Positions 653 through 9,501 of a stretch of 64,000 bases of DNA are shown here, piece by piece. Every line of letters begins with the position of its first letter. Position 1 is the stretch's first letter. The position numbers and the translations under genes are program-made. The notes under the pieces are model-generated. The model searched no databases. It was given only the letters and a program-made list of their open reading frames with translations, and was not told the origin of the DNA. The DNA is from Anaerosacchariphilus hominis. GTDB lineage: Bacteria > Bacillota > Clostridia > Lachnospirales > Lachnospiraceae. Location: contig NZ_JACOOR010000010.1 of the NCBI RefSeq assembly GCF_014290175.1, positions 1-64,000 of the forward strand. The letters run 5' to 3'.

Positions 653-715
653 ATGCTCTAAGTGATTGCTTCACTAACCATGACAAAATCATGATTAAGA
701 AGTCACTTAGAGCAT
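653..715. repeat. Inverted repeat at element end
   Basis: ATGCTCTAAGTGA (653-665) and TCACTTAGAGCAT (703-715) are perfect inverted copies 37 nt apart. The spacer holds two smaller palindromes, AGTGA-ttgct-TCACT (661-675) and CATGA-caaaa-TCATG (679-693). Position between the recombinase start and the virD4 junction suggests a recombinase-binding end sequence. A hairpin role in transcription is also possible. Confidence 0.65.
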
Positions 716-720
716 ATATC

Positions 721-1380
721 ACCCGCCGCCATCTTGAATTTGCGGTACTGCTTGACGGCGAAGTGGTCCGGCTCCCGTTCCTCCAGTTGAGAAAAGAGCA
801 GATCCACCGGGCTTTGATAAGTCTCGTCATCTTCTCTGGCCTCACTGGCATTGATAAGGTCCAGAAGTGTGATGAAGTTCTTTTCTTCCTCCGTGGCCTC
901 GTACCAGATGTAGCCGATCAGTGCGGAATAATAGAGGCGTTCCGCTTTGACCCAGAAATCTTCCGAAGATTTTTCGCCTTCGCCCTTCGTGTTCATAATC
1001 AGGGCATTCACCAGCTTTAAGATATCCTTCTCCGACCGAATGTAGGCCAGCGGGTTGTATTTCATGGATTTTCGGAAGTTTATCAGGTTGAGGCACTTGA
1101 TACGGTATTTCTTCCGTTCCAGGAAAGTGCCGATCTCCGGCAGCAAGGTCCCTTTCGGATCGGTGCAGACATAGGACGAATGGGCTTGCAGCAGCGACGG
1201 CTTACAGAAGAACCGCGTCTTGCCGCTGCCGGAACCGCCGATCACCAGAATGTTTTTGTTTCTGGCGTACTTCGGCTGCTTTGGGCGGCTCGCCATTGTG
1301 ATCCGCTCCGTCTGCGTCATGGGGATGTTCTGGAAAAAGTCCTTGTCCATGTAGGGAGCGATATCTGTCGCCGTACCCCA
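721..1380 (-). pseudogene. virD4/pcfC coupling protein, middle fragment
   Basis: Reads in frame from W-G-T-A-T-D-I-A-P-Y (1380 downwards) through the Walker A motif GGSGSGKTRF to K-M-A-A-G, where it enters foreign DNA and stops at 703. This is the central ATPase part of a VirD4/TraG-type coupling protein, which feeds relaxosomes into the type IV secretion channel at the membrane. Its N-terminus lies 7.8 kb away at 9211-9501, separated by an inserted element, and its C-terminal half was removed by another insertion at about 720. An internal ATG at 1350 could give a 215-residue product, but it would lack the membrane anchor and the Walker B region. Confidence 0.85.
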
Positions 1381-1438
1381 TGAAGCGTTTTGTCAAGTGC
1401 TTTTTTGAGTTATTGACGCAAATTATCGTGAAAGTGCG

Positions 1439-1485
1439 AAAGTGCAAAGTGCAAAGGGTCTGCGTTTTGCACTTTCAGCTTGCGG
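1439..1485 (-). terminator. Hairpin after the primase-helicase gene
   Basis: Tandem GAAAGTGC/AAAGTGC units (about 1430-1456) face TTTGCACTTTC at 1465-1478, so the transcript leaving the primase-helicase gene can fold into a GAAAGTGCAAA/TTTGCACTTTC hairpin. No strong U-run follows, so it may equally be an end-proximal recombinase site. Confidence 0.4.
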
Positions 1486-7248: not shown

Positions 7249-7285
7249 AAAAGAGGGATTTCCCGTAACTCGGAAAATCCCTCTT
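7249..7285 (-). terminator. Rho-independent terminator of the recombinase gene
   Basis: On the minus strand AAGAGGGATTT and AAATCCCTCTT form a near-perfect stem followed by TTTT. It lies 10 bp after the TnpX-like gene and before the TnpW-like gene. Confidence 0.8.
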
Positions 7286-7294
7286 GGTTGACGG

Positions 7295-9154
7295 TTATTC
7301 TGTTTTACTGTGTGGGCTGTGCGGCGGCTGCCTGCGCCTTTTTCTTCGCCCGGTATTCCCGCGCCTTGATACGGTCATACTCCCGCTGCTTTTCAAGGTT
7401 TCGCGCCCGGTACTCCCTTGAATACTGCCGGTGGTATGCGCGGCTCTTTTCCTTTTGGCTTCTTCGATTTCCTCCCGCATTTGCCGGATTTCCTGCTCGG
7501 TCGGTTCCGCAAGCTGTGTCACTTCATTCTCAAACTTGCCGATATAATTGAAATATATGCTGATGTGCTGGATTGCGTATCTCGCCCTTTTCTGGTCGCG
7601 CTCATACACTTCAATCCTGCTGATAAACTCGTTGAGAATGGCGGGTGTAAGGTCGGTAAAGGCAGCATGGCGTTCCGTCAGCTTCAAAAACTTCTGCGCC
7701 CGTCCTCCCGCGTTCTCATAAGCGGACAGCTGCTCTTGGAGCGTGGCAAGCTCCGCTTTCAACACATAGTATTCTTCCGAATACTTCTGCGACATCTGCT
7801 CATAACGATCTTGCGGGATCGTGCCGAGGGCGTTGTCCTCGTAGAGCTTGTTCAGCACCTTGTCAATCTGTTCAAGGCGCGTCGTGATTTGCGGGATACG
7901 CTTCTGCTGCTTTTTGGTCTGGTCGGTCTGCTGCATGGCAAGGTTCTTTTTCACTAAGGCTTCAAACTCTGCCCGGTTGCTGATAGAATAGTCCTCGATT
8001 TTCTTCAGCACTTCCGCGACGGTCTGCATGAGCAAGTCCGCGTCCATGATGTGCGGGGAGCTGCACTTGGGATTTTTTGCTTTTCCCTTGTGGTACTCGC
8101 TGCAATAGGCAACGTGCCGCTTGCTGCCGTATCTGTAATCTATTCGGATGTGCATTTTTGCGCCGCAGTCCTTACAGAAAAGTAAGCCCGACAAAGGGTG
8201 GATTTCCCCGTCCCCGTTGGGGCGTCTGACGGGTGCGTTTTCCAAAATCCGCTGTACGGTTTCAAAATCGCTGCGGCTGATAATCGGCTCATGCACATTT
8301 TCTGTGATGTGCCACTGGCTCCGGTCTACATAGTGGTTATGTTTATCCCGGAAATGCTTTGTAGTCTTGAAGTTGACTACATCGCCGCAATACTCCTGCC
8401 GTGTGAGGATATTGGTCAAGGTGGCTTTGTTCCACTTGCAGCGGCTATCCTCGTTGAGCGTCTTGTTTTTACAGGTTCCCCGCCCCCGGTCTTTCATATA
8501 GAAAGTGGGGGTAGGGATTTGCTCGTTTTTCAGATGCACGGCGATTTGGTTGCGGTTCTTCCCACCGATAAACAGACGGAAAATCAAACGGACAACCTCG
8601 GCGGCTTCCTCGTCGATTATCCAAAAATCCTTGTTGTCCGGGTCTTTGACATAACCGTAAGGGGCTTCGGTGACAATCGGCTTTCCACTCATGCCTTTGG
8701 TCTTAATGCCCGTTTTCACTTTCTTGCTGATGTCCTTTGCGTACCACTCCGACATGATATTGATAAAGGGCGCAAACTCCAGCGTGTCGGGTTTCTCGCT
8801 GTCAATGCCGTTGTTGACCGCGATAAAGCGCACATTGTTCCGTCTGAATATCTCCATCGCGTTGCCGACTTGGAGATAGTCGCGCCCCCAGCGGGTAAGG
8901 TCTTTCATAATGCAGACACCGATTTTCCCGTTTTCTACATCGTCCATCATGCGGGAGTAGGCAGAACGGTCAAAAAACCTGCCGCTTTCGTCATCGTCGA
9001 TGTAGTGCCGGATATTGGTTAGGTGCTGCCCTCTGGCATAGTTCTCCAAAAATATTTTTTGGTTCTGTATGCTGTTGCTCTCGCCGCCGTCCCTGTCCTC
9101 GTCGCCCACGGAAAGGCGGGAGTAAAGGGCTGTAATTTTGCTATAATCAGTCAT
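7295..9154 (-). CDS. tnpX: TnpX-like large serine recombinase (frameshifted C-terminus)
   Basis: Domains in order: serine recombinase catalytic domain (Y11-S-R-L-S15, with S15 the likely nucleophile), recombinase domain, zinc ribbon with C-x2-C (F-C-K-D-C-G) and later cysteines, coiled coil, and a basic tail. It should excise and integrate the surrounding 7.8-kb element. The ATG at 9154 (MTDYSKIT) has GGAGG 8 bp upstream and is preferred to the ATG at 9178. After E-E-A-K-R-K (about 7445) the frame appears shifted by one base: the alternative frame reads S-R-A-Y-H-R-Q-Y-S-R-E-Y and ends at 7305, and looks like the natural tail. Catalytic parts are intact, so activity may survive. Confidence 0.88.
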   Translation of the reverse strand: MTDYSKITALYSRLSVGDEDRDGGESNSIQNQKIFLENYARGQHLTNIRHYIDDDESGRFFDRSAYSRMMDDVENGKIGVCIMKDLTRWGRDYLQVGNAMEIFRRNNVRFIAVNNGIDSEKPDTLEFAPFINIMSEWYAKDISKKVKTGIKTKGMSGKPIVTEAPYGYVKDPDNKDFWIIDEEAAEVVRLIFRLFIGGKNRNQIAVHLKNEQIPTPTFYMKDRGRGTCKNKTLNEDSRCKWNKATLTNILTRQEYCGDVVNFKTTKHFRDKHNHYVDRSQWHITENVHEPIISRSDFETVQRILENAPVRRPNGDGEIHPLSGLLFCKDCGAKMHIRIDYRYGSKRHVAYCSEYHKGKAKNPKCSSPHIMDADLLMQTVAEVLKKIEDYSISNRAEFEALVKKNLAMQQTDQTKKQQKRIPQITTRLEQIDKVLNKLYEDNALGTIPQDRYEQMSQKYSEEYYVLKAELATLQEQLSAYENAGGRAQKFLKLTERHAAFTDLTPAILNEFISRIEVYERDQKRARYAIQHISIYFNYIGKFENEVTQLAEPTEQEIRQMREEIEEAKRKRAAHTTGSIQGSTGRETLKSSGSMTVSRRGNTGRRKRRRQPPHSPHSKTE

Positions 9155-9210
9155 GTGCATAACCTCCTGTGCGTCCATGTATGTGTCATTTACACTTAAA
9201 ATTATGCACT

Positions 9211-9501
9211 CCAGCGGGCAGAACCATACTCGATCCCGTGGCGATACTTCTTAGCGTTCTTGCCTTTCAGGTAGACCGTCATGCGAAGGACCACTGCACC
9301 GGTTATGCCGATCAGAAGGTCCGTGGGATGGAAACTGAGCCACGGGGAGGAAAATGCTGCCGTGAAGCCGTCTCCGATGGAGAGCAGCTTGCCGGAGAGG
9401 TCAGCGCCGGGCGCAAGCCGGAAAGCCTGTGCCAGCTTATCGAAGGGATACATAAACAGAAGATACGGAAGGTTCAGCAAAAACAGTTTTTTCATGTTCA
9501 T
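9211..9501 (-). pseudogene. virD4/pcfC coupling protein, N-terminal fragment
   Basis: A fragment with two membrane segments (L-F-L-L-N-L-P-Y-L-L-F and D-L-L-I-G-I-T-G-A-V-V-L), then K-G-K-N-A-K-K-Y-R-H-G and Y-G-S-A-R-W, the conserved start of VirD4/PcfC proteins. The frame enters inserted DNA after W and stops at 9202. It overlaps the pcfB stop by 4 bp (ATGA), the usual pcfB-pcfC coupling. The continuation lies at 1380 and downwards. Confidence 0.88.

What the first reader, a model, noticed from the sequence alone, without database searches (positions are those of the whole stretch)
703..9501. One virD4 gene hit twice by different serine-recombinase elements
virD4 pieces at 9211-9501 and 721-1380 join in frame when 1381-9210 is removed, and the same gene is cut again at about 720 by another element with its own large serine recombinase. 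Both recombinases have their start next to the element end. The conjugation gene itself seems to be a preferred target, which would disarm the host ICE while leaving the inserted elements dependent on another channel.
Basis: partly seen in the sequence, partly recalled or inferred. Interest (0 to 1): 0.75.

Follow-up and report, generated by a model that had tools for sequence, protein, structure and literature searches.

The report
Two mobilizable elements in one virD4
Two small hitchhiking DNA elements have each inserted at a fixed spot inside the same DNA-transfer gene of a larger mobile element; this kind of arrangement was already described, and the relatives examined here show it in many gut bacteria.

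Summary
Window 9501-9211 and 1389-721 (minus strand) are residues 1-97 and 94-316 of one CD1115-type VirD4. They are split at GSARW|G by a 7,833-bp integrative mobilizable element (IME): large serine recombinase (LSR), TnpW, MobA/MobL, primase-helicase. The gene stops again at AAG|K, where a second LSR begins. That element leaves the window; in a Gemmiger relative it is 15.7 kb and Tn6104-like.

LSR-A is in practice a virD4 integrase: 76 of 81 loci fit the W97 site (2 of these on eight bases only). In two family samples, inserts of 4 kb or more cut 8 of 42 virD4 genes but 1 of 48 VirB4 genes.

The kind is published: two IMEs in one traG/virD4, Tn6104 in traG, and excision restoring the gene (PMC5704250, PMC5357655). 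I add scale and shared anatomy. At three sites the LSR starts right behind the break, in virD4's direction. Element ends carry promoter halves (-35 and -10) that would lie 17 nt apart in the circle. Excision switched on by host conjugation transcription is a plausible, untested reading.

The parts
9211..9501 (-). virD4 piece 1, residues 1-97, ending ..GSARW
   Evidence: tblastn 80% id to L081 VirD4 residues 1-97
1379..9211 (-). element A, 7,833-bp IME inserted at virD4 codon W97/G98; TG core at 9213-9212 and 1380-1379
   Evidence: both junctions read; element length 7833
9201..9206 (-). CATAAT, -10-like hexamer at the left end of element A
   Evidence: CATAAT in 79 of 81 loci
7295..9178 (-). 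LSR-A, 627 aa, same direction as virD4
   Evidence: Pfam Resolvase, Recombinase, Zn_ribbon_recom, DUF4368
7034..7225 (-). TnpW, 63 aa
   Evidence: PF14202, 49.2 bits, cut-off 25
6604..6900 (-). 98-aa protein without a Pfam match
5586..6524 (-). cargo: S11 D-alanyl-D-alanine carboxypeptidase-like protein
   Evidence: PF00768 54.4 bits; best NCBIfam match VanY-D 82.5 bits against cut-off 625, so no resistance gene is called
5139..5435 (-). DUF3847 protein
   Evidence: PF12958
3393..5132 (-). MobA/MobL relaxase
   Evidence: PF03389, 318.7 bits
1475..3376 (-). Toprim/DUF3991/AAA_25 primase-helicase-like protein
1391..1396 (-). TTGACA, -35-like hexamer at the right end of element A
   Evidence: present in 45 of 45 readable right ends, 13 nt before the residue-98 codon
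721..1380 (-). virD4 piece 2, about residues 98-316, ending ..KMAAG
   Evidence: tblastn 92% id to residues 94-316; NCBIfam CD1115 model 232.2 bits against a whole-protein cut-off of 250
1..720 (-). left end of element B, runs off the window; TATGCT -10-like hexamer at 716-711
   Evidence: homology to virD4 stops at residue 316; DNA 96% identical to Gemmiger L099
1..630 (-). LSR-B, first 210 aa, same direction as virD4
   Evidence: PF00239 79.2 bits
9498..11859 (-). upstream ICE genes: DUF3801, DUF6017/HTH_36, DUF5720, HTH_17

Best explanation
Two different IMEs have integrated, each by its own site-specific LSR, into one virD4 (T4SS coupling protein) gene of a Tn1549/CD1115-type ICE. Shown: sites, ends, gene content, specificity of LSR-A, repeated occupation of the same sites, and LSR direction. 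Inferred: in the integrated state virD4 is split, so the host ICE's own channel lacks its coupling protein; the LSR, 30-110 nt behind the break and lacking a complete promoter of its own, is transcribed by read-through from the host operon; excision restores virD4 and joins the -35 and -10 halves so that the circle makes its own integrase; the MobA/MobL relaxase then sends the IME out through that or another T4SS, and it reinserts into a virD4.
For: Pieces map to adjacent residues of one gene. 76 of 81 LSR-A loci fit W97 (2 on eight bases only). 44 genome loci plus the window show the far junction at residue 98 with TTGACA (45 of 45). The -35 position in the integrated state matches TTGACA at no more than 2 of 6 bases in 81 of 81. 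Of 44 site-1 genes with the far junction visible, 17 hold a second LSR element. 98 of 98 scored junctions have the nearest LSR in virD4's direction, 95 within 300 nt. Element-end hexamers score 9-11 of 12 in 9 of 9 elements tested, at 17 nt in 8 and 18 nt in 1. No minus-strand promoter-like or terminator-like site between 9501 and 9178. Element B kin in G002 has LSR, TnpV, two-component system, ABC transporter, MobA/MobL, replisome organizer, as told for Tn6104 (PMC3158075, passages).
Against: No excision, transcript or transfer data. The end hexamers may be conserved as recombinase-binding sequence. Shuffled ends reached the observed score in 99, 141 and 176 of 2000 for three of nine elements. 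In G083 site 2 the integrated left end itself scores 10 of 12 and its far end was not located; in G075 site 2 joint and integrated scores tie at 9. At site 4 the LSR is 6.5 and 17 kb from the break. 5 of 81 LSR-A loci lie elsewhere. The far end of element B is outside the window.
Confidence: 0.85

Rival explanations
1. The insertions are terminal damage: virD4 of a decaying ICE is a neutral landing pad that fills with IMEs, which leave only through channels of other elements.
For: Multiple occupation is frequent (17 of 44) and higher than second occupation of genes with a free site 1 (5 of 39; Fisher P 0.012, confounded by how the loci were chosen). Some of the genes also carry group II introns (for L119), other breaks or later insertions. 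7 of 10 hosts have another contiguous virD4.
Against: Ends, core and LSR are kept intact and specific; reported excision of Tn6104 leaves an intact target site (PMC3158075, passages). 3 of 10 hosts show no other contiguous virD4 of at least 50% identity.
Confidence: 0.4
2. The two virD4 pieces come from different genes or a misassembly.
For: The pieces differ in identity to L081 (80% and 92%).
Against: Both pieces are closest to the same two relatives; the same double arrangement occurs in CCNA10, titled a complete genome (L004), in IMG/VR 2839391462 (L119/L114) and others.
Confidence: 0.02
3. The element-end hexamers are only recombinase half-sites and not a split promoter.
For: LSR-A and LSR-B are related (39-42% id over the body), and their right ends share more bases than the hexamer.
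Against: Spacing is 17 nt in 8 of 9 elements from four sites although cores and flanks differ. Tn4451 has a promoter formed by its circle (title of Lyras and Rood 2000 in the reference list seen).
Confidence: 0.25

Closest known systems
IME_Sco1050_traG_site1 and site2 (Streptococcus constellatus C1050; PMC5704250, passages)
   Same: Two serine-integrase IMEs at two sites of one traG/virD4 of a Tn5252-superfamily ICE.
   Different: Different host and elements; whether the codons are the same could not be checked.
Tn6104 and Tn6105 in ORF 1743 of Tn6103, C. difficile R20291 (PMC3158075, passages)
   Same: Two mobilizable transposons with serine recombinases in one gene; PMC5704250 Table 1 names traG as the Tn6104 target; Tn6104 is 15.6 kb with the same kind of cargo as element B kin (15.7 kb).
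   Different: Sequence identity to Tn6104 not tested; element A has another cargo and size.
Tn4451/Tn4453 (TnpX)
   Same: LSR, TnpW or TnpV, Mob gene; [quoted passage not shown]
   Different: Tn4451 is described as inserting at numerous GA sites (PMC5704250 Table 1), here the target is one codon of virD4.
IMEs in Tn1549_traG of Streptococcus suis (PMC7168690, passages)
   Same: Serine-integrase IMEs in the coupling-protein gene of Tn1549-family ICEs.
   Different: Another genus; site not given in the passages seen.

Membership tests
Integrative and mobilizable element (IME), element A | own integrase | tested here: met
   LSR with all four Pfam domains
Integrative and mobilizable element (IME), element A | own relaxase | tested here: met
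   MobA_MobL 318.7 bits
Integrative and mobilizable element (IME), element A | no mating pore genes | tested here: met
   no T4SS match among the element A proteins given to Pfam; only ORFs of 60 aa or more on the coding strand were looked at
Integrative and mobilizable element (IME), element A | excision and mobilization | not testable with these tools
   needs cells
Insertion in traG/virD4 of Tn5252-superfamily ICE | target gene is VirD4 coupling protein of such an ICE | tested here: met
   PF02534 68.6 bits; CD1115 model below its whole-protein cut-off, as expected of a piece
Insertion in traG/virD4 of Tn5252-superfamily ICE | site-specific, short direct repeat | tested here: met
   2-bp TG core; 76 of 81 loci at one codon (2 on eight bases only)
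Tn6104-like, element B | gene set and size of Tn6104 | tested here: inconclusive
   met in the G002 relative; the window holds only the first 720 bp
Tn4451-like | promoter formed by the circular joint | tested here: inconclusive
   consensus hexamers at 17 nt; no transcript data

The most novel reading that the evidence does not exclude
Several LSR lineages have converged on virD4 as a conjugation sensor. Integrated, the LSR has only half a promoter and is transcribed when the host conjugation operon reads through the broken gene; this excises the IME, restores the coupling protein just when the pore is built, and the circle then completes the LSR promoter for reinsertion. Genes with two or three IMEs would act as gates that open only when all have left.
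Probability: 0.3. Interest if true: 0.65.

Novelty: new member of a known kind. Interest (0 to 1): 0.38.

Why it matters
It shows that virD4 of CD1115/Tn1549-type ICEs is a recurrent home for mobilizable elements in gut Firmicutes, with at least four target sites and up to three elements in one gene. That bears on how often ICEs counted as conjugative in genome surveys can really transfer. It also turns the published idea that excision restores conjugation into a concrete test: does transcription of the conjugation operon drive the recombinase?

Tried and rejected
Whole-genome search of the window's own genome: none held. Plasmid collection, near mode, with 12.7 kb: only a 2% match in two Aeromonas records, not informative. 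Rfam on window 1-14000: nothing at gathering score. Viral-contig scans for LSR-A gave one close locus and one distant one. A large-scale LSR survey (PMC10083194) was searched for virD4, TraG and type IV secretion in its main text: no occurrence. The idea that the S11 peptidase makes element A a vancomycin-resistance carrier was rejected: VanY-D 82.5 bits against cut-off 625. One pair of ends (G083 site 2) could not be placed. A first tally gave 44 contiguous VirB4 genes; on recount it is 47, and the corrected test is. No structure prediction or protein-database search was run.

Rows left out of the virD4/VirB4 tally: genomes G002, G003, G004 (chosen for LSR-A); matches whose main piece is under 50% identity; single pieces without a partner on the contig, of which several stop or start at sites 1, 2 or 4; a middle-less pair in G104; and breaks of 2-3 kb (virD4: G064, G085, G096, G112, G115, G141; VirB4: G141). 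One of the 2-3 kb kind, in L119, is a group II intron by Rfam; the rest were not tested.

Full report
What is there. On the minus strand the window begins with the left end of an element whose LSR runs off the window (1-720), then virD4 residues about 98-316 (1380-721), then a 7,833-bp element (9211-1379), then virD4 residues 1-97 (9501-9211), then ICE genes DUF3801, DUF6017, DUF5720 and an HTH_17 protein. The virD4 pieces were aligned separately to an uninterrupted VirD4 (L081): 80% over residues 1-97 and 92% over residues 94-316. In DNA both pieces are closest to Clostridiales CCNA10 and to Gemmiger. 16 of 18 viral-contig relatives pass residue 97 without an insert; 2 do not cover it.

Element A carries an LSR of 627 aa, TnpW, an S11 carboxypeptidase-like protein, DUF3847, MobA/MobL and a Toprim/AAA protein: the anatomy of an IME without mating-pore genes among the proteins tested. 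No drug-resistance model reached its curated cut-off among the 20 window proteins given to NCBIfam; the DNA beyond the window start is unknown.

Specificity. A scan of genome contigs with LSR-A kept 80 loci, the best of 217. With the window, 72 of 81 show virD4 codons ..[S/T]AR before the core; 4 more have only 8-9 bases upstream that fit, and 2 of those (L022, L045) are confirmed by the far junction. 5 lie elsewhere or are unreadable: L010, L044 (partly masked), L059, L078, L080. The far junction was readable in 44 genome loci plus the window, all at residue 98.

More sites. 17 of those 44 genes hold a further LSR element: 7 at AAG|K (residue 316, like the window) and 10 at TDPKG (residues 171-173). 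This is a lower bound, since some loci end before these sites. The LSR at residue 316 is 93-95% or 77-78% identical to LSR-B over the region held; the LSRs at 171-173 are 51-75% identical. A fourth site near residue 507 appears in G018, G030 and G150. In G030 one virD4 lies in four pieces over 40 kb, with three elements. In Gemmiger G002, the closest kin by element B and the ICE flank, the residue-316 element is 15.7 kb and carries LSR, TnpV, a two-component system, an ABC transporter with two permeases, sigma-like proteins below cut-off, MobA/MobL, a replisome organizer and an IstB/DnaC-like ATPase. This is the set told for Tn6104 (15.6 kb; PMC3158075, passages).

Is virD4 hit more than a neighbour? 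In samples of 60 and 98 genomes (families of G002 and G004, the three LSR-A hosts removed), genes with a main piece of at least 50% identity were tallied by hand from the output. virD4: 34 contiguous, 8 cut by inserts of 4 kb or more with both flanks on one contig (12 inserts). VirB4 of the same ICE: 47 contiguous, 1 cut (Fisher P 0.011). An ambiguous VirB4 pair in G131 would make it 2 (P 0.040). An earlier test with 44 VirB4 genes rested on a miscount. Breaks of 2-3 kb, fragments and ambiguous pairs were left out (see Tried and rejected).

Anatomy. In 98 of 98 scored junctions (72 at site 1, 11 at site 2, 13 at site 3, 2 at site 4; not all independent) the nearest LSR points in virD4's direction, and 95 lie within 300 nt (only LSR-A and LSR-B were used as probes). 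The right end of element A has TTGACA in 45 of 45, the left end CATAAT in 79 of 81. Counted through the virD4 coordinate, the two would be 17 nt apart in the circle. Integrated, the -35 position holds virD4 sequence with 0-2 matches of 6. Nine elements from four sites score 9-11 of 12, at 17 nt in eight and 18 nt in one; shuffled ends reached that score in 1, 5, 6, 16, 16, 20, 99, 141 and 176 of 2000, so three of the nine are weak. Against it: of 7 further pairs, one was not located and its integrated end scores 10 of 12 by itself; G075 site 2 ties at 9; site 4 elements have their LSR far from the end. Within the window no promoter-like or terminator-like site on the minus strand lies between 9501 and 9178.

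Known or new. Guedon 2017 (PMC5704250, passages) states that ICEs of the Tn5252 superfamily can carry up to two IMEs at two sites of the VirD4 gene and lists Tn6104 in traG. Coluzzi 2017 (PMC5357655, passages) proposes that induction of conjugation excises the IME and restores the gene. Ambroset 2016 (PMC4701971, passages) and Libante 2019 (PMC7168690, passages) report traG insertions. Lyras and Rood 2000 (title only, in the reference list seen) report a promoter formed by the Tn4451 circle. I found no paper that combines the split promoter with virD4 IMEs in the searches; that library lacks most subscription journals. So this is a new member of a known kind, with a testable refinement.

Helpers. 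Of 10 genomes that hold LSR-A, 7 have another contiguous virD4 of at least 50% identity, 2 only more distant ones, and 1 (a MAG) none. Transfer through another channel is thus often possible but not required by the data.

Noticed in passing
G006:C20:727000-798000 (L103-L106): Nested set: virD4 cut at sites 1 and 3; the LSR gene of the site-3 element is itself split at about residue 130 by a roughly 52-kb stretch that holds a contiguous virD4 on the other strand and further LSRs.
   Followed up: partly
L119:18579-21083 and virD4 genes of G115, G085: 2.3-2.5-kb breaks at virD4 residue about 159; in L119 Rfam finds a group II intron end (RF00029, 57.6 bits). Other 2-3-kb breaks near residues 205 and 240 in G112, G141, G096.
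   Followed up: partly
L010, L059, L078, L080: LSR-A relatives outside virD4; L080 (Bifidobacterium boum) sits at a sequence resembling the virD4 site.
   Followed up: partly
window 5586-6524: S11 carboxypeptidase-like cargo gene in element A, distantly like VanY-D (far below the cut-off).
   Followed up: partly
window 12947-13924: Choloylglycine (bile salt) hydrolase gene next to the ICE end, 507.8 bits against cut-off 350.
   Followed up: no
window 3146-3377: Part of the primase-helicase gene is about 90% identical to two Aeromonas salmonicida plasmids, unexpected for a Firmicutes element.
   Followed up: no
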